The notes below the pieces were generated by a model. The model was given only the letters and a program-made list of their open reading frames with translations. It had not been told where the DNA came from and made no database searches. Both the position numbers and the translations under genes were made by a program. From contig WTKD01000004.1 in assembly GCA_011524535.1 (NCBI GenBank), positions 1-64,000 of the forward strand: a stretch of DNA of 64,000 nucleotides, in the 5' to 3' direction. How positions within the stretch are numbered: the stretch's first letter is position 1; every line of letters begins with the position of its first letter. Below are positions 37,620 through 50,899 of the stretch, in pieces. The stretch is from Spirochaetaceae bacterium (lineage in GTDB: Bacteria > Spirochaetota > Spirochaetia > WTKD01).

Positions 37620-38552
37620 ATGGCAGATAGCACTACCAATTTCTCACAAAAACAAGCTTCGCTTGAAAAGAAAACAAGAATTGGAGAATCTTTAATTCAT
37701 GTAGTGCTATTTGCCTGTGCCCTATGTTCGATCTTTACTACTGTCGGGATCGTCGTAATACTTGCAAGCCAATCAGCCTTATTTTTCGCCGACCCGCAGG
37801 TAACCTTATTAGGGTTCTTCACATCTTTCGAGTGGCAGCCTAGCATAGGAAAATTTGGCATCCTTCCACTCCTCAACGCAACTCTTCTTACCAGTTTTAT
37901 TGCCGTTGTATTTGCAACTCCCTTTGCAATACTCGTTGCTATTTTTCTCAGTGAATTCACCAAACCACGAATCAAAGCAATAATAAAACCCATCCTAGAA
38001 GTACTTGCGGGTATTCCTTCGGTCGTTTATGGATATTTTGCCGTTGGGACGGTGACTCCTGTACTTCAGAGAGTCTTCGGTTCTGATACCGTTGAATTTT
38101 ACAATACCGCTTCTGCCGGTATAGTCATTGGCATCCTTATTCTTCCAATACTCATCACAATGATTGATGATTCACTCACCAGTGTTCCAAATAATCTTCG
38201 TGAGGCGTCATTTGGACTGGGAGCAACTCGTCTGCAAACCTCTTTCGGCGTAGTTATTCCAGGCTCCTTCTCGGGAATAGCCGCAGCATTTATTCTCGGA
38301 TTCTCACGAGCTATCGGTGAAACAATGATTGTTGCGCTCGCTGCGGGTGCAGGTTCGGCATTGACTTGGAACCCCTTTCGGGGAGCAGAAACGATGACTG
38401 GGTACATCGTTCGAATAAGCGGTGGTGATATCAGTTATAATTCGATCGACTACAACAGCATCTTTGCCATAGGACTGGTGTTGTTCTTGGCCACTTTAGG
38501 ATTAAATATCATTAGCAGACGTATTGTGAAAAAGTATCAATGGAACGTATAA
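37620..38552 (+). CDS. pstC: Phosphate ABC transporter permease PstC
   Basis: The 310-residue membrane protein has six predicted helices and the coupling-helix motif EASFGLGATRLQTSFGVVIP (E and G residues of the EAA loop, about 197-216). It forms the phosphate channel with PstA. The stop overlaps the pstA start by 13 bp, indicating coupling. Confidence 0.93.
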   Translation: MADSTTNFSQKQASLEKKTRIGESLIHVVLFACALCSIFTTVGIVVILASQSALFFADPQVTLLGFFTSFEWQPSIGKFGILPLLNATLLTSFIAVVFATPFAILVAIFLSEFTKPRIKAIIKPILEVLAGIPSVVYGYFAVGTVTPVLQRVFGSDTVEFYNTASAGIVIGILILPILITMIDDSLTSVPNNLREASFGLGATRLQTSFGVVIPGSFSGIAAAFILGFSRAIGETMIVALAAGAGSALTWNPFRGAETMTGYIVRISGGDISYNSIDYNSIFAIGLVLFLATLGLNIISRRIVKKYQWNV

Positions 38553-39823
38553 CTTCTCATTCCTCTAAACACAGCGAAGATATAAACAAGGCTCTGCAAT
38601 GGCAGCCAAAACCATTACGCACACGAAAAAGAAACGAAACGATAATGCGCACGCTCATGCTTATCGCGCTTTACTGCACTATATCGTTTTTATTCATACT
38701 TGCGGGCAGCATCATAAACAATGCATTCGGATATGTTCTATTTACGTATGAAATTCATCCGACCGAATTTTCTCAAGGTGGAGAAATAAATGAACTCTCA
38801 CATGCTAAAAAAATAGCAATCCTAAAAGAGAACCTTCGGGAAAGGGTTTATATCACCCTAGACAGAAAAAAACCGATGGAAAAACGATCTAGCCAAGACC
38901 TCTCTGCTATCATTTTCTCTCGTGTACTAAAAGCCTCCGTGCTTGAGGCTTACTCTCTATTTGAATCACTTTTCCAACGAGGTCAACTAATTGAAAACGC
39001 ACTTACATATCCTAATGCAGACTTGATATTTCGATCTTGGATTTCTCCACGCTTCATCCGGGGCGAACAAAGCACAAACCCCCTAGAAAGTGGTATTTGG
39101 GGAGCAATTACCGGCTCCGTGGGCGTTATTTTGGTCACTATTTTGTTTAGTTTTCCTCTAGGCATTGGCACTGCGGTGTATTTATGTGAGTACATGCCTC
39201 GATCCCGCTGGAAAAATCTCCTGCAAATAAATATCTACAACCTTTCCGGAGTCCCTTCAATTATTTATGGATTGCTCGGACTCGTTGTATTTGTGCGTGT
39301 GTTTTTACCCATCACAAGCGGACAATTATTTGGATTTACATCGGGTGCTGCTACCGATAGCGGTAGAACAATCTTGTCTGCTGGACTCACCCTTACTTTG
39401 CTCATACTTCCCGTAATCGTTATCAACACACAAGAAGCCATACTTTCGGTTCCAACGTATATAAAACAGGCTAGTTACGGACTTGGAGCAACCAAATGGC
39501 AAACCGTATGGCATCATATTATTCCTTATTGTATAGGACGTATTCTCACGGGGACAATCTTATCGGTATCCAGAGCCATAGGTGAAACCGCACCCTTGGT
39601 GGTGGTCGGAGCATCCACATTTCTAACCATTGTCCCAAATTCTATTTTTTCGAAATATACCACATTACCCATACAAATATATCAATGGTCAGCCCGCCCA
39701 CAACAAGAGTTTCAAAACCTTGCCGCTGGTGCCATCCTCGTATTGTTAACAATTATGCTCACGTTGAATTTTATTGCAATCATGTATAGAAAAAGAGTTC
39801 AGAAAAAATTGGCGAGACTATGA
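38540..39823 (+). CDS. pstA: Phosphate ABC transporter permease PstA, with a large N-terminal periplasmic insert
   Basis: The C-terminal 240 residues are a normal PstA permease, with the EAA-type loop [19 protein letters not shown] (about 310-328) and [15 protein letters not shown]. The protein is 427 residues, against about 280-300 in classical PstA. The first membrane helix (about 34-62) is followed by about 120 residues of probably periplasmic sequence before the second helix near 190. PstA proteins with such inserts exist in other bacteria, but its role is not known to me. The stop overlaps pstB by four bases (ATGA). Confidence 0.9.
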
Positions 39824-40569
39824 AATCGATAATACAAATAAAAAACTTCAACTTCTTTTATGGAGAATCACAGGCTTTACACGATGTCACATTAGATTTT
39901 AATGAAAACCAGATAAGCGCATTGATTGGCCCCTCGGGTTGTGGGAAAACAACTCTTCTTCGCTGTATCAACCGTATGAATGATCTCATAGATGATACAC
40001 GTTCGGAGGGAAACATAACAATACACGAAAAAAACATCTATCTTGCGGAAGTCGACCCTGTGGAAGTAAGAAGAAAAGTAGGTATGGTATTTCAAAAACC
40101 AAACCCCTTTCCAAAAACAATCTGGGATAACATCGTCTGGGGCGCAAAAATAAATGGATATACCGGAAATCTAGAAGAGTTGGTAGAGAGTACTTTGACC
40201 CGGACCGCCCTATGGGACGAGGTGAAAGATAAACTCCACACGAATGCCCTTTTTCTCTCTGGAGGCCAACAACAACGACTGTGCATTGCTCGCGCAATCG
40301 CAATAAAACCAGATGTTATATTGATGGACGAGCCAACCTCAGCCCTCGACCCCGTAGCAACCGCACGCATAGAAAGCCTCATTACCGAATTAAAAAAACG
40401 CTATTCCATCGTGATAGTTACACACAACATGCAACAGGCAGGAAGGATATCCGACTGCACATCATTTTTATTAAATGGCGTTGTTGTCGAGCATGGAAGA
40501 ACAAAAGAAATATTTCTGAATCCCAAAGAAAAGAAAACAGAAGAGTATATTTCGGGAGAATTCGGTTAA
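39820..40569 (+). CDS. pstB: Phosphate ABC transporter ATPase PstB
   Basis: The 249-residue ATPase has all nucleotide-site motifs: Walker [10 protein letters not shown] (about 37-45), Q loop FQKPNPFP typical of PstB, signature LSGGQQQR, Walker [13 protein letters not shown] and the switch His in IVTHNMQQA. It powers phosphate import through PstCA. Confidence 0.96.
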
Positions 40570-40640
40570 TAAATTACAAAAACATACTCACTTACCCCAT
40601 ATGCACTAGCAGTATGTACTTAAAACAATAATAATAAGAG

Positions 40641-41306
40641 ATGATGCAAATGAAGACCCCTTTAGAAACGGAAATCACACATATTGATAAAGCTGTACAA
40701 CAACTTGGAGATATGGTGCTTACGAATGTACAAAAAGTTATGACTATGGTAAAAACACAATCCACAGAAAAATATGATTCTCTGATTGAAAGCGACAAAA
40801 AAATAGATAAAAAAGCTATTGATACTGAAGAAATGTGTACTTCTCTGATTGCAAGAGGTAACCCAGTGGCATCAAACCTGCGTCATATCGTCAGTATTCT
40901 GAAGGTTTCAAGTGAACTTGAACGTATTGCGGATTATGCAAAATACATTATCCGAGACCTTAAAAAAGTATCGCCCGACTTCTTTATGCAAATGAATATA
41001 TTAGTGGGTGAGATGCTTGAGATTGGCACCCATATGGTTCAAACTTCGATCACAGCATTTAAAGAAGATAACATAAAAAAAGCAATTGAATCCGCAAAGG
41101 AAGACGATCGATTGGATACATTGCATAGATCGCTCTACAAAAGAATAATAAAAATCACCAAGAACACCGAAAACGATCACATCCTCGAAGAAGCTTCTTC
41201 GATGTTTTTTATAAACCGTTTTCTTGAGCGCATCGGAGATCATTCTACAAATATCTGCGAATGGTTATATTATGCGAAAACCGGCGAGCGAATCAATCTA
41301 AATTAG
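40641..41306 (+). CDS. phoU: Phosphate signalling protein PhoU
   Basis: The 221-residue all-helical protein has the two three-helix PhoU bundles, with metal-binding acidic motifs such as ERIADYAK (about 94-101) and ERIGDHSTNICEW (about 196-208). PhoU damps phosphate uptake and PhoR-type signalling. Three in-frame ATGs (40641, 40644, 40650) are possible; AAGAG at 40636-40640 best fits 40650. It closes the pst operon, 71 bp after pstB. No phoB/phoR pair is in the window. Confidence 0.93.
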   Translation: MMQMKTPLETEITHIDKAVQQLGDMVLTNVQKVMTMVKTQSTEKYDSLIESDKKIDKKAIDTEEMCTSLIARGNPVASNLRHIVSILKVSSELERIADYAKYIIRDLKKVSPDFFMQMNILVGEMLEIGTHMVQTSITAFKEDNIKKAIESAKEDDRLDTLHRSLYKRIIKITKNTENDHILEEASSMFFINRFLERIGDHSTNICEWLYYAKTGERINLN

Positions 41307-41376: not shown

Positions 41377-42453
41377 GTGAGTTTTTCTGTTTCTGTGAAT
41401 CCATGGGTGTGTCATGCAAAATACAGCGAAGGTCTTTGGCCAACAACGTGGCAAATGAAGCCCTACTCAACCCTTGAGAAGGAGGGGAAAGCCCAATCAG
41501 GTCATGATCCCATCGATCGTAATTCGTTTCCTGAGTTACCACTTATAAACTATACTACCCAATACGGACTGGGCTGCTTTGAAGGAATCAAAGCCTATCC
41601 TCAGCAAGACGGCTCACTGCGCATATTTAGATCAGACAAGAGCGGTGAACGTATGAAACGTTCGATGGAAGGTCTGATGATGCCGGGATTTCCTGTAGAC
41701 AAATACGTAGAAACCATAACCAAATTGTGCAAGCAAAATCTTGAATTTTCACCATCCTACCAACCGGAATGGGAAGCAAACAATTTTGGGGCTGCTGGAT
41801 CCTTGTACATACGCCCTTTCAGCTACACAGAGGCTGGCATCGGAGTTAATATCAGTTTTAATCCGTGGGTGGTATTTGTGACCACCAATGTTGGATCATA
41901 TTTCACCAATAATGAACAGGCTCGTGGTACAACGGTATTAACCTGTCGCGCGACACCGGGAGGTACCGGCTCACTAAAATGTGCTTCGAATTATGTAATA
42001 TCTGCAATAGAACGTGAAAAAGCATTGCGAAACGGGTTCATGGAAGTTGTCTTTTTGGATGCATTCACGAAAACTTCTATCGAAGAAGGGTCTTCTTCAA
42101 ATTTCTTTGCCGTAATGAAAGATGGCACTTTGGTCACCCCTTCCCTAGGGGATACCGTTCTTGCGGGGATTACCCGAGATTCCGTGTGTATACTAGCAAA
42201 GGATCAGGGAATACGCGTAGAAGAGCGAGAACTACCATTGCAAGAAGTTCTGGAAAACGCAAAAGAAGTGTTCCTAACTGGAACAGCTGCTGGAATATCT
42301 CATTTGTCTTCGTTGACCCATCAAGGAAAAGAATACACCTTTGGGGACGGCACCATCGGTGAGCTAACTCTCTCGCTGAAAAAAACTTTGAAAGGTATTC
42401 AATACGGTCTGTTGGAAGATAAATACGGGTGGACTATTCCTGTCCATCCCTAA
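41377..42453 (+). CDS. ilvE: Branched-chain amino acid aminotransferase
   Basis: The 358-residue class IV PLP enzyme shows the substrate loop YGLGCFEGIKAY (about 64-75), LYIRPF (about 145), the PLP-binding Lys in GSLKCASNYV (about residue 200) and SSSNFFAV plus LTGTAAGIS. The length and N-terminus (NPWVCHAKYSEGLWP) match the longer BCAT group that includes eukaryote-like enzymes. It interconverts leucine, isoleucine and valine with their 2-oxo acids, for synthesis or breakdown. The GTG start has GGAGG nine bases upstream. No ilv or leu genes are adjacent. Confidence 0.93.
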   Translation: MSFSVSVNPWVCHAKYSEGLWPTTWQMKPYSTLEKEGKAQSGHDPIDRNSFPELPLINYTTQYGLGCFEGIKAYPQQDGSLRIFRSDKSGERMKRSMEGLMMPGFPVDKYVETITKLCKQNLEFSPSYQPEWEANNFGAAGSLYIRPFSYTEAGIGVNISFNPWVVFVTTNVGSYFTNNEQARGTTVLTCRATPGGTGSLKCASNYVISAIEREKALRNGFMEVVFLDAFTKTSIEEGSSSNFFAVMKDGTLVTPSLGDTVLAGITRDSVCILAKDQGIRVEERELPLQEVLENAKEVFLTGTAAGISHLSSLTHQGKEYTFGDGTIGELTLSLKKTLKGIQYGLLEDKYGWTIPVHP

Positions 42454-42479: not shown

Positions 42480-45400
42480 CTATTGCGCAAAAGAATACGC
42501 AGATTCTGGCAATTGCTCGGAAATAAATTGATCAAATTGTATCTCGGATAAGCTTGCTGGGAGAACATTATCAATCGAAACATCAAAGGAATCTTGCGGG
42601 TATAGAACTTCACGCAAGTTTACATAGGGTAAACTTTTTGCCAAAGAACGTTGAAGATTTTCTTGTGATCGATTGAAATCTTCGAATAGACGAATCGCCT
42701 GTTCGAGCGCAAGTACCGCTTGCGCCTCTCTTCTTGGATCCTGTTTTCTCTCAGCAATTCTGTATCGAGAAACTCCAAGGCCATTGTATGCCTTTATCAT
42801 GTACAATATCAGCGAATTGTGTTCGGCATTTTCAAAGGGAGAAAACAATCGAATTGCATCTCGTTTTTCATCTAATAATTCGGTAAGCTGGAAAAAATAA
42901 GCTTCGGAGGCAGAGTAATTTTCGAGATGGTACAATGCGCTTGCCGTAGCGAGTAATCCAGCTGCATCGCGCGGGGGATGTGTCTCGGTATTGAGAAATA
43001 GTTCGACAGCAAGAGCATAATCCTCTTCTCTGTACATAGTATTTCCCGTCTTATAAAACAGTTCCCTCGAGGAACGCCCTTCTTCGAGCGCTCGCTCAAA
43101 ATACCTTCTTGCTTCTTCAAAATTCTTGCTATAAAAATAGCGTATATCCCCAAGACCTTCATAGAACCGCGCAAGGTGCGCATCTTTTTCTAGAGTATTG
43201 GTCTCTAATCCAAGAACATATCTTTCGAGCGATTTTTGATACAGCGATTCAGCCTCAAGTGCGCGATCTCTGTCGTATGCCAACTCAGCAATACGATTGT
43301 TGGAATCGATATACATCGACAATTTATCCCAGCGAAGGGGTTCGGAGGCTTCCAAAATAGCTATCGTATTTTCTAATTCGACACGCTCTTCTGTCAGCAT
43401 CCCAATCATACGAAAATATTGTGCCGACCAATAATGTCCTCCAGCCTCGTAAGGGTATTCGTCCCTCAATTCTTTTAGCAAGGGGGCTACATAGGCAAGT
43501 TCATTGTTCTCCATGAGGTATTGAGCAATATCCGTAAAGATAGGTATGACAATTGGTGTATCCGACAGCCGATCGGTTATTCTTGGCAATAACTCTCGGA
43601 GACCAACAAGATTATCAGATTTTTGCGCATACCATGCTAGGCGTATGTTTAATTCATTATCGATTCCATGCTCTTGGATAATTCGCTGATACACTGTGCC
43701 CGCATTCAATAATTGACTAGGATCTTCCTCTGACCACCGGACATAGTTGTCACCTTGCAAAATCAATGCATTCCGCTCGTATGGCTCTTCCACAAGGACA
43801 ACAGATAACAAATCATCGGCGCGAGCAAAATCATGAAATTCATTTGATTGCAGGAGCGAATGTTCAAAAATGCCCGTTTTGTTCACATTAACAAGATCAA
43901 TCAGTCTAACGGTCTCACTCCCGAGATCGTATTGATCAAGTAAAACCCTTTCCTTGGTTTTTTGCTTCAACAAGTCACTCAGGTCTGTATCTATTCCATA
44001 AATCAGCTCATCATATTTTTTTGATGCAAGAAAATATTCGTGTATCTCTGTATAGCTTTGCGCATAGCGGAGTGCCCAAGAATCATTCTCCCACTCCGTC
44101 CAGGCTTCCTCAAATAATGCATCACTTTCGCTATACTCTTCCGCCAACAGGGCCTCATGACCTTTTTTATACAAGGACCTGGCTAAGAGGGGGCGATAAA
44201 CAAAATTGAACAATATCAGCGAAAACAAAATCATTGCCGCAAGGCTTCCGGTGGTCACGGCAAGTTTTCTTATAAACTTTCTTGCAGGACTATTTTTCTT
44301 TTCTTCGGTTTCGCGGAAATACTCTGCCGCGGTACCTTTTTCGTATCCATACGGAAGTTGCAGGTGACTACCAGTATATCTATTGAGCATACGCACAATG
44401 AGATTTTGGCGACCTCCATTCTTTAGAAGGGTTACAATATTTGAAACATGCTCTTTTTCGCTTTCTGGGTTTGAAATGAATTCTGCACACGCGGCTCGGA
44501 CATCAAAGGGTAATGAATCTACATTTTTTAGAATTCGATTGTATTCTTCTTCTGTAAACGTTTCTCCTTCTTTTTTCTCATGTTGTTCTCTCGCGTAAAC
44601 ATTCGATGTATCGGCACCCTCAGCTTTTTTACTCATTCCCTGGGTGGAGGATACCCCCGAAAAGTTTAGGTCGAGCGAGCTTTCTATGTCCGAATCGATT
44701 TCAGGAGCGCCCAGTCTGAAATCTTCACTTGTGCTTGCGGGTGCGGGCTCTTCAGAAAATTCTTCTTGAAATTTATCTAGCGATTCCTTCCTATACGTTG
44801 CACTTGCAGACTGTATATCATCACTCTGCAGATCTTGCTCACGCATAAGTTCAATTAGAGATTCAAGGTCTTCACCGCTTTCTCCCTCAATAGGAGATTC
44901 CTGTTCCTTGGGAGGATCAGTTTCAAATCCGGCAAAATCATCTTCTATCTCGGGAATAGATTCAGAACCGCCCTGGTCCATTCCGGTGGAGCTAATCTCA
45001 AAAGATTCTTCCTCTTGGACATTAGGTTTATCGTTTGTTTCGATACGTTCATCATCCCCAATAGATTCTGAATCCGATGATTCTGCAAAGAGATTAGACA
45101 AATCAAAATCATCGCTCTCAGATTGACTATTTGCATCAGAAATTTCTTCGATTTTTTCTGGAGGAGAAAATTCTACAGGTTCATCCCGATTAACACTGGA
45201 AGCAACCTCTCTCACCGAGGGGTTTTCTTGAGAAGACAACAAATCAGCAATTTCCGATTGCCCAATGCCAAGACGGGACTGAGAATGGGAACTCGAAGAT
45301 GGTGTATTTTCTAGTTGTGATTCCTGAAATTGTCTTGAATAATCAGAAGCCTGTTGCCGTTCTATGTCGGTTGAAGGACCTGCTGACGTGTCCGAAGAAA

Positions 45401-45530
45401 ACTCCATTTGTTCGTATTTTGGAAGTTCAACCTTTGCAACTTCTTCCCCACGTTCTCTAAGGACTTCTGGTTCTTTTGCAATTTGAAATAACTTTTGTGA
45501 AAATTCTTCTACTTCGCGTATTGATGGCAT
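42480..45530 (-). CDS. Large single-pass TPR protein, candidate flagellar collar protein FlcA
   Basis: The 1016-residue protein has three parts. Residues 1-330 are cytoplasmic, acidic and Ser/Glu/Asp-rich, apart from a conserved-looking start (MPSIREVEEFSQKLF). A small helical domain (about 335-400, DVRAACAEFISNP) precedes one membrane helix (about 425-448). The remaining 560 residues are periplasmic and consist of repeated helix pairs of TPR type (for example ARRYFERALEEGRSSRELFYKTGNTMY, aromatic and small residues at TPR spacing). This topology matches FlcA (BB0326) of Borrelia burgdorferi, which builds the spirochaete-specific flagellar collar. The identification is by topology, size and TPR content only, with no alignment. 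Both ends are intact; the start codon lies 90 bp from a divergent exported-protein gene. Confidence 0.75.
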   Translation of the reverse strand: MPSIREVEEFSQKLFQIAKEPEVLRERGEEVAKVELPKYEQMEFSSDTSAGPSTDIERQQASDYSRQFQESQLENTPSSSSHSQSRLGIGQSEIADLLSSQENPSVREVASSVNRDEPVEFSPPEKIEEISDANSQSESDDFDLSNLFAESSDSESIGDDERIETNDKPNVQEEESFEISSTGMDQGGSESIPEIEDDFAGFETDPPKEQESPIEGESGEDLESLIELMREQDLQSDDIQSASATYRKESLDKFQEEFSEEPAPASTSEDFRLGAPEIDSDIESSLDLNFSGVSSTQGMSKKAEGADTSNVYAREQHEKKEGETFTEEEYNRILKNVDSLPFDVRAACAEFISNPESEKEHVSNIVTLLKNGGRQNLIVRMLNRYTGSHLQLPYGYEKGTAAEYFRETEEKKNSPARKFIRKLAVTTGSLAAMILFSLILFNFVYRPLLARSLYKKGHEALLAEEYSESDALFEEAWTEWENDSWALRYAQSYTEIHEYFLASKKYDELIYGIDTDLSDLLKQKTKERVLLDQYDLGSETVRLIDLVNVNKTGIFEHSLLQSNEFHDFARADDLLSVVLVEEPYERNALILQGDNYVRWSEEDPSQLLNAGTVYQRIIQEHGIDNELNIRLAWYAQKSDNLVGLRELLPRITDRLSDTPIVIPIFTDIAQYLMENNELAYVAPLLKELRDEYPYEAGGHYWSAQYFRMIGMLTEERVELENTIAILEASEPLRWDKLSMYIDSNNRIAELAYDRDRALEAESLYQKSLERYVLGLETNTLEKDAHLARFYEGLGDIRYFYSKNFEEARRYFERALEEGRSSRELFYKTGNTMYREEDYALAVELFLNTETHPPRDAAGLLATASALYHLENYSASEAYFFQLTELLDEKRDAIRLFSPFENAEHNSLILYMIKAYNGLGVSRYRIAERKQDPRREAQAVLALEQAIRLFEDFNRSQENLQRSLAKSLPYVNLREVLYPQDSFDVSIDNVLPASLSEIQFDQFISEQLPESAYSFAQ

Positions 45531-45620
45531 ACCACTACGATCTTATAGTCGACAACTTAAGCATCCAGTTGAATAGAATACCTCTATTCATATTCATAAA
45601 CATTCCGATACTGACGTGTA

Positions 45621-46385
45621 ATGAAAAAGAGCGTATTTTATCTCCTGTTATGCCTCACATCTCTTGGAATGACTGCAGAAACATACACCCCTCGAACAGA
45701 TGATATCACATTATACTTGTATCTTGCCGAGCTCAGTGGAGCAAGCGCTCCTTATATACAACAATCGCACGTAATTTTTACGTATCATACCAAAAGACAT
45801 ATACGAGGGATAGCTGTTTCATTTAAACATGAATCTTTTCGCAATCGCTACGTATTTACCAAGAGTTCCACTACGAGCGGTTTATATTACCTGGCACTCC
45901 CCATGCAAGATTTCCCCTCTACCGAGATCTATTATCAATACATTGTAGATGGGGTAAGAATACATGATCCTAAAAACGAACAGATGATGCTTCTCTCTTC
46001 CGGCGCCAAAATCTCGGAATTCACATTTTCTGAAACTAAAAACCAGCTTTATGGCGATATCAATGAATCTCCTCGAACACAATTCACTATTGATTTCTCC
46101 GAACGAAGCAATACTGCGGTGAAAACTATCTTCGATACTTATTATATTTCTCAGGACGCCCCTTCGTATGTGTCGGTAGTGGGTAATTTTAACGGGTGGG
46201 AGCCATTTTTTACCCCTCTTACCAAGGAATCAGCGAAGCAGTTTTCGGTAAACGTACCAAGGTTATCTGGAACAATTTATTATTATTTCTTCGTTGATGG
46301 AGAGAGAATTCTAGACCCACAAAATACAAATATCGCACTCGATAGGGTTAGAGGACATCGAGTATCTGTTTTAAAATTGCCATGA
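45621..46385 (+). CDS. Exported protein with a carbohydrate-binding CBM48/AMPK-like domain
   Basis: The 254-residue protein has a signal peptide (MKKSVFYLLLCLTSLGM; cleavage about residue 19) and two similar beta-sandwich halves. The second (about 180-254) carries SVVGNFNGWEPFFTPLTK and YYFFVDGERILDPQN, the signature of the glycogen-binding domain of AMPK-beta and branching enzymes. The first half has the corresponding YYQYIVDGVRIHDPKN. There is no catalytic domain. It probably binds a glucan or glycan in the periplasm; the partner is unknown. It overlaps the next gene by four bases, so the two are coupled. Confidence 0.7.
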   Translation: MKKSVFYLLLCLTSLGMTAETYTPRTDDITLYLYLAELSGASAPYIQQSHVIFTYHTKRHIRGIAVSFKHESFRNRYVFTKSSTTSGLYYLALPMQDFPSTEIYYQYIVDGVRIHDPKNEQMMLLSSGAKISEFTFSETKNQLYGDINESPRTQFTIDFSERSNTAVKTIFDTYYISQDAPSYVSVVGNFNGWEPFFTPLTKESAKQFSVNVPRLSGTIYYYFFVDGERILDPQNTNIALDRVRGHRVSVLKLP

Positions 46386-46858
46386 CCATTCGATTGCGTA
46401 TAAAACATAAAGATGACCACCAACTCATCGCAACTTTACATCCTTATTTTCGGGTGATATGTGGAATTTTGGCTGTAGTGCTGAGTGGTGTAAATATTGT
46501 GTCTGGCACCATTACTTTCCTCCCGGCCACTTTGTTTGTTTTTTCCTGTCTCTCTATGTGTTATCACGAGACATGGGTCTGTGACCGTGACAGGCGCATT
46601 CTCACACAAAAGATCGGTGTAATTCTTCCATTTAGAAAAAAGACCATCCCCATCGAAACTATAAAGAAATTCGGATGTATAACTATCTCACAAAAAAGGG
46701 CATTTAGATCGAGACCCCTTTCACGCTCACTCATATACACACATGACGGGAGATTGATAACCATAGAGATAGTTCCGAAGGAAACTCCTTCGATGGCAGA
46801 ACTATTTGCCCAGTTTCTTGACCTCGAATTCGATGAGCAAAGCAACATCGAAAAATAA
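46382..46858 (+). CDS. Membrane protein with PH-like C-terminus, unknown function
   Basis: The 158-residue protein has two closely spaced membrane helices (about 25-45 and 48-65) and a cytoplasmic, beta-rich tail (about 70-150; WVCDRDRRILTQKIG...IETIKKFGCITI) that resembles bacterial PH-like domains. It is translationally coupled (ATGA) to the exported glycan-binding-like protein, so they may form one membrane complex. I do not recognise a named family. Confidence 0.55.
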   Translation: MTIRLRIKHKDDHQLIATLHPYFRVICGILAVVLSGVNIVSGTITFLPATLFVFSCLSMCYHETWVCDRDRRILTQKIGVILPFRKKTIPIETIKKFGCITISQKRAFRSRPLSRSLIYTHDGRLITIEIVPKETPSMAELFAQFLDLEFDEQSNIEK

Positions 46859-46874
46859 AGTATCTACAGTGAAT

Positions 46875-47894
46875 CTATTCAGAATTGCTAAAATCAACGC
46901 GACTGTGGTGCAAAAAACAAGCAACTTTATGATTGTCTGTCATTCGAGCTCGATACGGTTTCTCATTCTTGCAGCGTTCCATCCGGTTTGCACAGCGCTC
47001 ATAGAACACACACCCTTTATGCAATTTGTTCGGTGATGGAACTTCTCCTTCTAGGGGTATTCGTTTTCTCTTTGACTCTAATTTTGGATCGGGAACAGGA
47101 ACAGACGACAAGAGTGCTCTTGTATAGGGGTGCAAGGGATTATTGAACAATTCTTCGGTGTCTCCCTCTTCAACAATTCGCCCTAAATACATTACTGCAA
47201 CACGATTTGTTATATATCTGACTACTGCGAGGTCGTGCGCAATAAAAATATACGTAAGTTTGAAGTCTTCTTGAAGTTTACGGAGTAGATTGATAATTTG
47301 CGCTTGAATCGACACGTCGAGCGCACTTACCGCTTCATCTGCAACCAACAATGTGGGGTCAAGAGAAAGAGCCCGCGCGATACCAATCCTCTGTCGCTGA
47401 CCTCCAGAAAATTCATGAGGATACCTGTTTTCATAATGTGGGGAAAGCCCAACCATGGTCATAAGCTCTTTGACGCGCGAACGTATCTCACTTCCGCTCA
47501 TCGATGCTTGAGCCCTTTTATTATATATGTGCAGAGGCTCTGCAATGATTGAACCTGCGGTCATACGAGGGTCCAAAGAAGAATAGGGGTCTTGGAAGAT
47601 CATCTGTATTTCTTTGCGAATGGGGAGCATTTCACGAAAAGAAAGAGGTAAAATGTCCGTTCCTTTCCAGAATACGCTTCCAGAATGAGCAGGTACAAGT
47701 TTGACGAGCGATCGTGCAGCACTTGATTTACCACAGCCAGATTCACCTACAAGCCCGAGGATATCTCCTTCTTCCAAAGTGAACGAAATAGAATCTACTG
47801 CGTATATATGACCCACCGTACGTTTAAACACAGTCCCGCTAAGAATTGGATATCTCACGGAAAGGTTCTGTACTTCTAATAATTTTCTACTCAT
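46875..47894 (-). CDS. oppF: Oligopeptide ABC transporter ATPase OppF (system 1)
   Basis: The 339-residue ATPase has Walker A GESGCGKSS (about 45-53), signature FSGGQRQRIGIARAL, Walker B LLVADEAVSALD and the switch His in FIAHDLAVV. The C-terminal oligopeptide-type extension with four cysteines (GCVFYERCANRMERC...CFL) is present. The ATG at 47894 is chosen because it overlaps the oppD stop by eight bases and has GGGG upstream. It is the last gene of oppA-B-C-D-F (system 1), transcribed leftward. Confidence 0.95.
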   Translation of the reverse strand: MSRKLLEVQNLSVRYPILSGTVFKRTVGHIYAVDSISFTLEEGDILGLVGESGCGKSSAARSLVKLVPAHSGSVFWKGTDILPLSFREMLPIRKEIQMIFQDPYSSLDPRMTAGSIIAEPLHIYNKRAQASMSGSEIRSRVKELMTMVGLSPHYENRYPHEFSGGQRQRIGIARALSLDPTLLVADEAVSALDVSIQAQIINLLRKLQEDFKLTYIFIAHDLAVVRYITNRVAVMYLGRIVEEGDTEELFNNPLHPYTRALLSSVPVPDPKLESKRKRIPLEGEVPSPNKLHKGCVFYERCANRMERCKNEKPYRARMTDNHKVACFLHHSRVDFSNSE

Positions 47895-48870
47895 TTGCGT
47901 CATCCCCATATAACCAACAGTGTACGTTTCGTTCATGCGAAAAATTGCTAATCGGCGGATAACTTACCGTACATTCAGAACGAACAAATTCGCAGCGAGG
48001 GGCGAATGGACAACCATCAGGAAGAGAAACTAACAAAGGAGGCTGACCAGGAATTGTATACAATTCTCCCTTTATTTCGCTGTCTGCCCGTGGTATGGAT
48101 TTCAAAAGCCCCTTTGTATAGGGGTGTTTTGGGTCCTCAAATAATTCATTTGTCGATGCTTTTTCAACGATCTTTCCAGAATACATTACGTGCACACGAT
48201 CACAGAATCCTGCAACTACACCAAGATCATGGGTGATGAGGATAATAGATGTATCTAGTTGGTCTTTCAATTTGTGCAGTAGTTCCATTACTTGCGCTTG
48301 AATAGTGACGTCGAGCGCTGTTGTTGGTTCATCTGCAATGATAAGAGATGGATCACAACTGATAGCCATGGCAATCATTATTCTTTGCCGCATACCTCCC
48401 GAGAACTGATGAGGGTAATCATCAACTCGTTGTTTTGGCTGTGGGACACCGGTCAATTGCAATAATTCTATCGCTCTGTCTTTTGCATCCTGCTTCGATA
48501 TATCAAGATGACGGCGCATTATTTCGATGAGCTGTGTTGAGATACGCAAGAATGGGTTCAATGAGGTCATTGGGTCTTGAAATATCATGGCTATTTTCTT
48601 GCCGCGAATATCTCTCATATACCGCTCTTTTTTTTCGATCAAGTTCTCGTTACCAAAAATAACATCACCGCTAACCGAGACATTCTTACCAATCGGAAGC
48701 AGCCCCATAATACTCATCCCCATTACGGTCTTTCCGGAGCCAGATTCACCAACAATTCCCAAAACTTCGCCCTTCTTCAGATCAAAACTCACATCGTCAA
48801 CTGCCTTAACAATACCAATATCCGTTTTAAATTGGGTGCGTAGATGCTTTACTTCAAGTATTGGTTTCAT
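47887..48870 (-). CDS. oppD: Oligopeptide ABC transporter ATPase OppD (system 1)
   Basis: The 327-residue ATPase has Walker A GESGSGKTV, signature FSGGMRQRIMIAMAI, Walker B LIIADEPTTALD, the switch His in LITHDLGVV, and a C-terminal four-cysteine extension (GCPFAPRCEFVRSEC...CWL). It pairs with OppF to drive peptide import. Its ATG overlaps the oppC stop by one base (TGATG). Confidence 0.95.
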   Translation of the reverse strand: MKPILEVKHLRTQFKTDIGIVKAVDDVSFDLKKGEVLGIVGESGSGKTVMGMSIMGLLPIGKNVSVSGDVIFGNENLIEKKERYMRDIRGKKIAMIFQDPMTSLNPFLRISTQLIEIMRRHLDISKQDAKDRAIELLQLTGVPQPKQRVDDYPHQFSGGMRQRIMIAMAISCDPSLIIADEPTTALDVTIQAQVMELLHKLKDQLDTSIILITHDLGVVAGFCDRVHVMYSGKIVEKASTNELFEDPKHPYTKGLLKSIPRADSEIKGELYTIPGQPPLLVSLPDGCPFAPRCEFVRSECTVSYPPISNFSHERNVHCWLYGDDANE

Positions 48871-49973
48871 CAGTTTTCATACCTACTCTTTGGATCAAAT
48901 GCATCACGAACACCATCACCCAAAAAATTGATCGACAGCAAAAATGCAGACATTATCACAGACGGGAAAAAGAGCCTCCAAGGGGCCACGTCCATAGCAG
49001 GAACAGCGTCAGCGATTAATGTCCCCCAAGATGCACTCGGCGCGGAAATACCAAGCCCTAAAAATGATAAGAATGACTCAAGCAGAATGAATACTGGGAT
49101 ACGCAAGGTTCCAAAAATGATTATCACACCAATAGAATTCGGCAGGAGATGTTTCCAAATAATTTGAAATACAGAAGCTCCAGAGCAGCGCGCAGCGTGT
49201 ACATATTCAAGGTTCTTTATACTCAAAACCTGTCCTCTCACAACCCGTGAAGCGGTGAGCCAACTCATGATAGCAAGCGCAAAAAATAAATTGAATACAC
49301 TACTGCCAAACATAGACATAAAAATGATAACTAAAAGCATGTAGGGAAGACCATATAGAATATCAACAACACGCATAATCATTGTGTCTAAAAATCCACC
49401 AAAATAGCCCGCAAGAGAGCCAAAAAAGACCCCTATGACCATAGAAGTTAATGCTCCTATAATTCCAACGGCGATGGATACCTGACTTCCAAAAATAACA
49501 CGACTGAGCAAATCACGCCCAAGGTAATCGGTTCCAAAGAAATATACGCGATGGTGAACCAATACCTCTTCTCCATCAATGATCGCTGTTTCGGTATCGA
49601 TTCGTGAACGAATATCGGCAAGTTTTGCCTGCTCTTCTTCGGTCAACTCGCGGTTTTCTTTTTCTGCAAAACGTGTCAAAAGGTCTTCTTCTCGTTCGTA
49701 CCACAACTCACCTGCAATCTTTCCAAATGAAGGAGGAAGATCACGGTGTTCAATAACCTGATATCGATACGAGTATAGCGGTAGTATCGGAGCAAATATG
49801 GCTATGAGAATATATATCACTACGATAGCCAGTCCAACCATCGCCAAAACATTCTTGCTAAGGCGTCTGAACGCCTCCATGGTCAAACTGCGCTGAGGGA
49901 TGTTAGATTCTCCAACGATCTGTGCAGCCCTTTCTTTATTTGATGATCCAGTCATTTCGCTTGGTTTATTCAT
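48870..49973 (-). CDS. oppC: Oligopeptide ABC transporter permease OppC (system 1)
   Basis: The 367-residue permease has an N-terminal helix (about 43-65), about 75 mostly charged periplasmic residues, and the C-terminal permease domain with five helices and the EAA loop HAARCSGASVFQIIWKHLLP. The GTDYLGRDLLSRVIFG motif is typical of DppC/OppC. Start and stop both overlap neighbours (four bases with oppB, one with oppD). Confidence 0.94.
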   Translation of the reverse strand: MNKPSEMTGSSNKERAAQIVGESNIPQRSLTMEAFRRLSKNVLAMVGLAIVVIYILIAIFAPILPLYSYRYQVIEHRDLPPSFGKIAGELWYEREEDLLTRFAEKENRELTEEEQAKLADIRSRIDTETAIIDGEEVLVHHRVYFFGTDYLGRDLLSRVIFGSQVSIAVGIIGALTSMVIGVFFGSLAGYFGGFLDTMIMRVVDILYGLPYMLLVIIFMSMFGSSVFNLFFALAIMSWLTASRVVRGQVLSIKNLEYVHAARCSGASVFQIIWKHLLPNSIGVIIIFGTLRIPVFILLESFLSFLGLGISAPSASWGTLIADAVPAMDVAPWRLFFPSVIMSAFLLSINFLGDGVRDAFDPKSRYEN

Positions 49974-50899
49974 GAGTAGCTTATCCTGGGGTCCAATATA
50001 CCGTATATAATATCAACCAAAAGATTCATTACTATAAGAACTGTAGAATAAATAATGACAGTCCCCATGATCATTGTATAATCTCGATTGAAGGCAGACT
50101 GTACAAAGAACACTCCTATCCCGGGAACACGAAAAATAGTTTCAATTACAACCGATCCAGTGAGCATTGCAGCAAAAGTTGGGCCAAAATAGCTCGCAAT
50201 GGGTAACAATGCGCCCTTTAAAACATGTTTTGTCAAAATATACGAAGGGGAAAGCCCCTTTGCATTCGCGGTTCGTATATAATCGCTTTGTAACACTTCG
50301 ATCGTGCTTGCTCGAGAAAGCCGGGCCATGGTCGCAACATAGTATAAAGCCAGTGATATCACCGGTAGAACGAGTGTAAGAACGCCCGCGCGCCCACTCA
50401 ACCAGCCGGATGTCGGTAATAATCCCCATTGCAAAGAAAAGAAATACATGAACAAGGGTCCTATCACAAAACTTGGAACAGAAACCCCAAACACAGCAAA
50501 CAACATAAACGAATAATCATAGAGCGTATTTCGCTTATACCCCGCAATAACCCCTGAAGAGATCCCTATCATCAAGGCAATCCCCATGGCAAGGCTCGCG
50601 AGAAGCATAGAGTTGGGGAGGCTTCTAAATAAGTATTCGCTAACACTCCTGTCTGCATATCTAAAAGATGGTCCCAAATCACCGCGTAAAAGGCTGTATA
50701 CATAACGTGCATACTGCACGACTATTGGTTCATCAAGATTGTATTTTTCTTCTATATTTCGAAGGATATTTTCTGGAATCGCCTTCTCTCTATCAAATGG
50801 ACCACCCGGGGCCAATCGGATGAAAAAGAAACAGATCGTCACAATAATAAACAGAGTGGGGATTGTCCCCAATATTCTTCGTATTACATAACCGGACAT
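49970..50899 (-). CDS. oppB: Oligopeptide ABC transporter permease OppB (system 1)
   Basis: The 309-residue permease has the standard six helices, N-terminal GYVIRRILGTIPTLF, and the EAA loop TANAKGLSPSYILTKHVLK. It forms the channel with OppC. It is separated from oppA by 144 bp that include a hairpin terminator, so its expression is likely lower than that of oppA. Confidence 0.94.
   Translation of the reverse strand: MSGYVIRRILGTIPTLFIIVTICFFFIRLAPGGPFDREKAIPENILRNIEEKYNLDEPIVVQYARYVYSLLRGDLGPSFRYADRSVSEYLFRSLPNSMLLASLAMGIALMIGISSGVIAGYKRNTLYDYSFMLFAVFGVSVPSFVIGPLFMYFFSLQWGLLPTSGWLSGRAGVLTLVLPVISLALYYVATMARLSRASTIEVLQSDYIRTANAKGLSPSYILTKHVLKGALLPIASYFGPTFAAMLTGSVVIETIFRVPGIGVFFVQSAFNRDYTMIMGTVIIYSTVLIVMNLLVDIIYGILDPRISYS

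What the first reader, a model, noticed from the sequence alone, without database searches (positions are those of the whole stretch)
42480..45530. Candidate FlcA, the flagellar collar scaffold
The topology (acidic cytoplasmic N-terminus, one membrane helix near 435, long periplasmic TPR array) matches the Borrelia collar protein FlcA, a spirochaete-only structure that recruits stators. If correct, the 330-residue cytoplasmic acidic arm would be a distinctive feature worth comparing.
Basis: partly seen in the sequence, partly recalled or inferred. Interest (0 to 1): 0.55.

Follow-up and report, generated by a model that had tools for sequence, protein, structure and literature searches.

The report
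FlcA collar protein, with conserved neighbour
This gene encodes a genuine but divergent copy of FlcA, a known scaffold of the spirochaete flagellar motor, and right beside it lies an uncharacterised secreted gene that keeps company with FlcA in most relatives of its class and may be a missing part of the same motor.

Summary
Supported. The 1016-aa minus-strand ORF at 42480-45530 is FlcA. It passes both curated FlcA models (C-terminal 415.4 bits, cut-off 300; N-terminal 38.6, cut-off 28), has no rival in its genome (next hit 29.7 bits), and is the only gene hit by a BB0326-type protein. The genome also encodes FlbB, FliL, MotA/B and FliF. The cytoplasmic side has a conserved 38-residue tip, a ~287-residue disordered acidic arm, and a conserved, non-acidic helical domain before the membrane helix. 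The acidic arm is not distinctive: all 42 relatives measured beside it have one, and only five have their membrane helix nearer the start. The arms are enriched in D[LF]xx[LF] (37 of 40 above shuffled expectation). The unexpected result is the divergent neighbour (45621-46385 +), a secreted tandem-CBM48 protein: same divergent place in 72 of 86 distinct flcA loci (69 of 75 in the class, 3 of 11 outside), and present or absent together with FlcA in 212 of 214 class genomes. It is a candidate for an unassigned motor or collar part; that is inference.

The parts
42480..45530 (-). flcA, periplasmic flagellar collar protein FlcA, 1016 aa
   Evidence: NF047371 415.4 bits (cut-off 300), NF047372 38.6 bits (cut-off 28); unique in genome
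45417..45530 (-). FlcA residues 1-38: conserved cytoplasmic tip (FlcA_NTERM), predicted helices 4-18 and 20-26
44556..45416 (-). FlcA residues 39-325: disordered acidic arm (net -55) with D[LF]xx[LF] motifs at 143, 198 and 221
44286..44546 (-). FlcA residues 329-415: conserved membrane-proximal cytoplasmic helical domain, the best conserved of the eight regions compared (0.546; last TPR third 0.540)
44190..44264 (-). FlcA residues 423-447: single transmembrane helix
42546..44189 (-). FlcA residues 448-995: TPR-type solenoid, periplasmic by homology
45531..45620 (.). 90-bp divergent intergenic region between flcA and its neighbour
   Evidence: one promoter-like site found in 45480-45680 against 0.8 expected, so no evidence of a promoter
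45621..46385 (+). conserved divergent neighbour: secreted tandem-CBM48 protein, 254 aa; proposed, not shown, to belong with the collar or motor

Best explanation
The gene is the FlcA orthologue of a small-genome flagellated spirochaete. By homology to Borrelia FlcA, the TPR solenoid stands in the periplasm at the rim of the collar and contacts FliL and MotB, so that stator units stay at the motor; the single helix anchors it in the inner membrane. Inferred here: the cytoplasmic side is a tether, in which the conserved N-terminal tip and the D[LF]xx[LF] motifs of a flexible acidic arm bind one or more cytoplasmic partners of the motor, and the conserved membrane-proximal domain fixes the arm to the membrane helix. 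Shown here: family membership, uniqueness in the genome, sequence topology, and acidic arms in the sampled relatives. Inferred by homology: periplasmic orientation and stator stabilisation. Inferred from anatomy only: tethering.
For: Two curated models passed. Single strong locus in the genome. A separate contig has a flagellar operon in which FliF, MotB and FliL, MotA (Pfam) and FlbB (NF047368, 186.9 bits, cut-off 110) are supported by family matches. BLASTP to the BB0326-type protein E 8e-30 over 721 columns, 22% identity. Top Foldseek hit is the solved TPR domain of Leptospira LIC11990 (E 2.7e-9), with the longest alignment among the VIA rows shown (Z 18.3, rmsd 6.1, 477 aligned, model 448-995). 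In Borrelia FlcA is assigned to the S-shaped peripheral density, interacts with FliL and MotB, and without it one class of motors lacks stators and another keeps some (PMC11750108 passages; PMC8609358 passages). Arm length varies widely while tip and proximal domain are conserved, and D[LF]xx[LF] is enriched, as expected of a tether.
Against: The copy is divergent: 415 bits, where the class matches listed (a list cut at 549 bits) score up to 849; its best BLASTP relative among those compared is 28% identical. No localisation, interaction or phenotype was tested for this organism. FlcB, FlcC and FlcD were not searched for with real models. Positive charge lies on both sides of the membrane helix, so orientation rests on homology. 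Unrelated TPR proteins score higher by fold over shorter stretches (LGN, Z 24.8, 316 aligned), so the fold shows TPR, not FlcA. The tip is mainly a class feature: outside the class only 6 listed genomes match it. The motif pattern was chosen after looking at this arm, and other hydrophobic spacings are raised too. The tip's lower mean conservation (0.380) is partly from relatives cut before their start.
Confidence: 0.93

Rival explanations
1. It is a generic membrane-anchored TPR protein, not FlcA; the resemblance comes from TPR repeats alone.
For: At E <= 10 NF047371 gives sub-cut-off hits in 12 of 14 control genomes (11 of 14 at the stricter threshold) through shared TPR character; Pfam TPR matches are all below cut-off; other TPR proteins score higher by fold over shorter stretches.
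Against: Over the cut-off in none of 14 controls but in the window gene; the non-TPR parts also match: N-terminal motif over cut-off with 0 of 14 controls hit, and conserved proximal domain and membrane helix in the same order.
Confidence: 0.03
2. The acidic arm is a passive spacer: a charged polymer with no specific partner, that only keeps the cytoplasmic face clear.
For: Sequence conservation of the arm is low (0.188) and length varies, with the membrane helix starting from 339 to 985. The tip is not detected in most genomes outside the class, while loci measured there still have arms.
Against: A conserved tip at the far end in 175 of 392 genomes, and D[LF]xx[LF] above shuffled expectation in 37 of 40 arms, are not expected of a mere spacer.
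Confidence: 0.35
3. The divergent tandem-CBM48 neighbour is an envelope or glycan-binding protein unrelated to the motor, kept beside flcA by chance or shared promoter DNA, and lost together with flagella in reduced genomes.
For: CBM48 is a carbohydrate-binding fold. The gene is not beside flcA in 14 of 86 distinct loci, and outside the class it is beside flcA in only 3 of 11 assessable loci. In Borrelia-type genomes it lies about 11 kb away. Joint absence is mostly one family (36 of 42, five of them assumed).
Against: Joint absence also in one genus of f9 and two of f13, of which other genera keep both; where the gene has moved away from flcA, as in Borrelia- and T. putidum-type genomes, it is still kept; the protein looks exported.
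Confidence: 0.6

Closest known systems
Borrelia burgdorferi FlcA (BB0326)
   Same: Same two curated domains over cut-off (L043: 664 and 42.5 bits), one membrane helix, TPR part, acidic arm.
   Different: 22% identity over 721 columns; this protein is 85 aa longer, with a longer arm (membrane helix at 424 against 339); the gene beside it differs.
Leptospira interrogans LIC11990 C-terminal TPR domain (PDB 8EBF)
   Same: Top Foldseek hit, E 2.7e-9; Z 18.3, rmsd 6.1, 477 aligned over model residues 448-995.
   Different: Whether LIC11990 is the Leptospira FlcA was not established here; 17% identity; rmsd is high.
AMPK beta / CBM48 domains (for the neighbour)
   Same: Residues 39-137 match CBM48 of a feruloyl esterase (Z 12.1, rmsd 2.1, 92 aligned) and 167-253 match AMPK beta-1 CBM (Z 11.2, rmsd 1.5, 77 aligned).
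   Different: Tandem, apparently secreted, no enzyme domain; in NCBIfam only branching-enzyme-type and T9SS-plug models match, at most 7 of 52 members, none for the window protein at E <= 0.001.
FimV/HubP polar hubs (recalled, from no call)
   Same: Periplasmic part, one membrane helix, long acidic cytoplasmic region ending in a short conserved motif.
   Different: Opposite order along the chain and no sequence link tested; an analogy only.

Membership tests
FlcA | FlcA_CTERM model over curated cut-off | tested here: met
   415.4 bits, cut-off 300, residues 329-992
FlcA | FlcA_NTERM model over curated cut-off at residue 1 | tested here: met
   38.6 bits, cut-off 28, residues 1-38
FlcA | best and only match in the genome; reciprocal with BB0326-type protein | tested here: met
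FlcA | single internal membrane helix followed by TPR solenoid | tested here: met
FlcA | genome encodes flagella and the collar base FlbB | tested here: met
FlcA | spirochaete lineage | tested here: met
   genomes of its class and phylum share it; the 80 named relatives are titled Spirochaetes or genera within them
FlcA | location at collar rim; stator stabilisation through FliL and MotB | not testable with these tools
   known from Borrelia in the passages seen
FlcA | presence of FlcB, FlcC, FlcD partners | not tested
   two guessed family numbers proved unrelated; not pursued
CBM48 (divergent neighbour) | CBM48/AMPK-CBM sequence and fold | tested here: met
   AMPK1_CBM 34.6 bits, cut-off 26.8, in the window protein, and matched by 52 of 52 members; both halves match by fold
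CBM48 (divergent neighbour) | glycan binding | not testable with these tools
   Trp193 of the second domain is kept in 52 of 52; position 113 is Trp in 51 of 52 but Arg in the window protein; binding unknown

The most novel reading that the evidence does not exclude
The secreted tandem-CBM48 protein encoded divergently from flcA is an unrecognised periplasmic part of the spirochaete flagellar motor or collar, perhaps filling one of the unassigned densities or anchoring the collar rim to a cell-wall glycan, and FlcA's cytoplasmic arm is a multivalent tether to a cytoplasmic motor partner. Together they would make FlcA the link between a periplasmic glycan-facing element, the stators and the cytoplasm.
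Probability: 0.35. Interest if true: 0.75.

Novelty: new member of a known kind. Interest (0 to 1): 0.5.

Why it matters
FlcA is known, so the identification is ordinary. What is useful: the published Borrelia collar model still has large unassigned densities (PMC11750108 passage); the FlcA construct and fit described in the passages seen concern its C-terminal, periplasmic part; and this locus points to two concrete, testable items, a conserved uncharacterised secreted partner gene and conserved cytoplasmic modules of FlcA.

Tried and rejected
Generic TPR protein: rejected. Distinctive arm: rejected; all 43 proteins measured (42 relatives and this one) have acidic arms, and so do 19 of the 25 more divergent loci (the other six could not be measured: masked bases, cut or uncertain start, or membrane helix not found). 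An alignment of 18 divergent FlcAs was too variable for the search for related loci. A scan with the window protein alone gave 20 pattern matches and no relative. A scan with a closer alignment kept 80 of 130 relatives. Guessing NCBIfam numbers next to FlcA's for other collar proteins gave two unrelated toxin-antitoxin families without a match. The divergent intergenic region shows no more promoter-like sites than shuffled DNA. The solved-structure sequence search with the FlcA profile found TPR proteins and designed or fusion constructs that hold TPRs, best natural one 8EBF. The first neighbour clustering reported 62 of 80 named loci for the neighbour's cluster; rechecked, 21 of its 76 ORFs did not match the neighbour's profile (they look like antisense frames of flcA), and the profile finds the gene in 55 of 80. 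The other clusters were not rechecked.

Paper searches: the term BB0336 found 0 papers; p26 with enolase, oppA and Borrelia burgdorferi 0; glycogen-binding domain with spirochete and flagellar 1, a termite-gut paper by its listing; CBM48-type terms with spirochaete terms gave 72 papers, none of the 10 listed holding the CBM terms. So no print on the neighbour was found in this open library only. On FlcA's cytoplasmic part: searches listed no paper that I could see treating it, and PMC11750108 has no occurrence of 'disordered' or 'cytosol'; the original BB0326 paper is not held. Whether the Borrelia orthologue was among the eight candidates deleted in PMC8609358 could not be seen (its list is not in the passages).

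Dropped before counts: one search used 43 of 54 proteins (10 loci were cut before the start, one longest frame was probably not FlcA); four of the 43 are cut at the start. One search dropped six loci (masked, contig-cut, or uncertain helix or start) and thinned the treponeme family to four arms. further dropped the tandem-repeat arm L054 and L068 and L076. leave out 35 of 126 loci with under 900 bp upstream (8 of those 35 do have the gene). In one search genome handles were read by eye and typed in; five unlisted handles were inferred from gaps in the numbering; genomes with only weak hits (FlcA E above 1e-12; neighbour E above 1e-13) were counted as lacking, the next stronger ones being below 1e-50 and 1e-37.

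Full report
Observation. The ORF is real: window 42480-45530, minus strand, ATG to stop, 1016 aa. It has one membrane helix (best hydropathy window starts at 423; model helix 415-462), an acidic N-terminal stretch and a helical-repeat C-terminal part.

Identity. NCBIfam FlcA_CTERM matches at 415.4 bits (cut-off 300, residues 329-992) and FlcA_NTERM at 38.6 bits (cut-off 28, residues 1-38). In its own genome the next FlcA_CTERM hit is 29.7 bits, and FlcA_NTERM matches once. FlcA_CTERM is over cut-off in 204 of 392 genomes of the phylum sample and in 0 of 14 control genomes. FlcA_NTERM matches at E <= 0.001 in 175 of 392 and 0 of 14 controls, one match in each genome listed with a match; only six of these lie outside the class. 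L043 from a Borrelia-like genome is 931 aa; the peptide encoded by the published BB0326 construct primer starts exactly at its residue 360 and its last residues match the other primer. L043 searched against the window's genome hits only this gene (two segments, E 1.5e-17 and 9e-17); BLASTP gives E 8e-30 over 721 columns at 22%. The copy is divergent for its class: the matches listed, a list cut at 549 bits, reach 849.

Context in the genome. A separate contig (L060) carries a flagellar operon that I read as flgB, flgC, fliE, fliF, fliG, fliH, fliI, fliJ-like, flbB, fliK-like, flgD, flgE, motA, motB, fliL, fliM, fliY-like. Family matches support FliF, MotB and FliL and MotA; FliJ is below its cut-offs; FlbB passes its curated model (186.9 bits, cut-off 110); the other names are by recognition. 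So rotor, stator and collar base are present.

Anatomy. A 57-member alignment gives mean conservation 0.380 for residues 1-38 (30% gaps, as some relatives were used from the proximal domain on), 0.188 for 39-325, 0.546 for 329-415, 0.483 for 424-447 and 0.494-0.540 for the solenoid thirds. The model (57 sequences, mean pLDDT 74.8) shows helices 4-18 and 20-26 (pLDDT 79-88), very low confidence for most of 40-322, five helices in 327-412 (pLDDT 70-87 up to 390, then 56-68), the long membrane helix, then the solenoid to about 976. The membrane-proximal cytoplasmic domain is thus at least as conserved as the solenoid. In the passages seen, the Borrelia construct (360-931) and the tomogram fit concern the C-terminal part.

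The acidic arm is a family feature. In 43 proteins (this one and 42 relatives) the membrane helix starts at 339-985 (here 424; five are shorter), the arm has 19-47% D+E (here 26%) and 0-7% K+R (here 7%, the highest of the 43). Of 25 more divergent loci, 19 could be measured and have arms of 213-519 residues with 24-47% D+E; many of them have no detectable tip motif. In 43 arms with the treponemes thinned, D[LF]xx[LF] occurs 158 times against 50.4 in shuffles. After removing a tandem-repeat arm and two others, 37 of 40 arms are above shuffled expectation, and in the 26 low-repeat arms there are 75 against 20.2. This arm has three, reached by 0 of 500 shuffles. The pattern was picked after seeing this arm, and other hydrophobic spacings are raised too, so part of the signal is clustering; no other acidic disordered proteins were used as a control. 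A multivalent tether is the reading I prefer; a passive spacer is not excluded.

The divergent neighbour. Ninety bases upstream, on the other strand, lies a 254-aa protein with a signal-peptide-like N-terminus (by eye) and an AMPK1_CBM match (34.6 bits, cut-off 26.8). A profile finds it in 55 of the 80 named FlcA loci (a number of the others end near the gene). Among 91 loci with a complete FlcA start and at least 900 bp upstream, 77 have it, all divergent; reduced to distinct FlcA sequences, 72 of 86, namely 69 of 75 in the class and 3 of 11 outside it. Three further loci outside the class have it but with less upstream DNA. The small 1.1-Mb treponeme-like genome (L036) has it too. So adjacency is the rule in the class and the exception outside. 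Sampling leans to Spirochaetaceae and Treponema because searched with such sequences.

Co-occurrence. In the window's class, 170 of 214 genomes have both a strong FlcA and a strong match to this family, 42 have neither, and one each has only one. The one without strong FlcA (G305) has the FlcA N-terminal motif, so probably a split flcA; the one without a strong neighbour (G343) has weak matches. Four of the 42 (G260, G326, G361, G370) have weak CBM matches that I counted as absent. The 42 are 36 of family f12 (five of them unlisted handles assumed to belong there), four of genus g13 in f9, and two genera of f13, while G297 in f9 and G245 and G307 in f13 keep both; this suggests at least three joint losses. 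I did not test whether those genomes lack flagella altogether, which would explain joint loss without any specific link.

In a Borrelia-type genome the orthologue (251 aa, E 1.5e-55 with my profile) lies between genes I recognise as oppF and enolase, about 11 kb from flcA. In the window the neighbour is followed by a 158-aa ORF and then the opp genes in convergent orientation (names by recognition). Inverting the Borrelia opp block would restore the window's order, so the displacement could be one inversion. The label BB0336/P26 for the Borrelia gene is recalled and comes from no call. In T. putidum-type genomes the gene sits elsewhere but is kept.

Fold of the neighbour. The model (52 sequences, mean pLDDT 82.8, pTM 0.55) has two domains. 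Residues 39-137 match the CBM48 of a feruloyl esterase (Z 12.1, rmsd 2.1, 92 aligned) and 167-253 match the AMPK beta-1 CBM (Z 11.2, rmsd 1.5, 77 aligned). AMPK1_CBM is matched by 52 of 52 members; in NCBIfam at most 7 of 52 match any one model. Trp193 is invariant; position 113 is Trp in 51 of 52 but Arg in the window protein.

Verdict. FlcA: confirmed, known kind, divergent member. The arm is ordinary for the family. The new element is a conserved uncharacterised secreted partner gene whose role in the motor is a hypothesis from linkage and co-occurrence only; the 2025 collar model reports large unassigned densities (PMC11750108 passage), which is why it is worth testing.

Noticed in passing
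window 45621-46385 (+): Secreted tandem-CBM48 protein, divergent from flcA in most class loci and co-occurring with it across the class; uncharacterised.
   Followed up: yes
window 41377-42453 (+): Branched-chain aminotransferase (ilvE), convergent with flcA; tblastn finds it in 36 of the 128 flcA loci searched (some are the same genome twice), reason unknown.
   Followed up: partly
window 46382-46858 (+): 158-aa protein, hydrophobic in part by eye, no family match, between the CBM48 gene and oppF; only two weak relatives among the flcA loci.
   Followed up: no
G149, G238, G265, G316 (genus g13 of family f9) and G361, G370 (family f13): Genomes that lack a strong match to both FlcA and the CBM48 partner although other genera of their families keep both; good places to study loss of the motor.
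   Followed up: no
L054, FlcA residues about 111-233: The acidic arm of this FlcA is a long tandem array of a six-residue EIDNLD-like repeat, an extreme form of the arm motif.
   Followed up: no
window 37620-41306 and 46875-50899: Phosphate-uptake genes (pst-like, phoU-like) on one side and an oligopeptide ABC transporter on the other side of the flcA pair; named by recognition.
   Followed up: no
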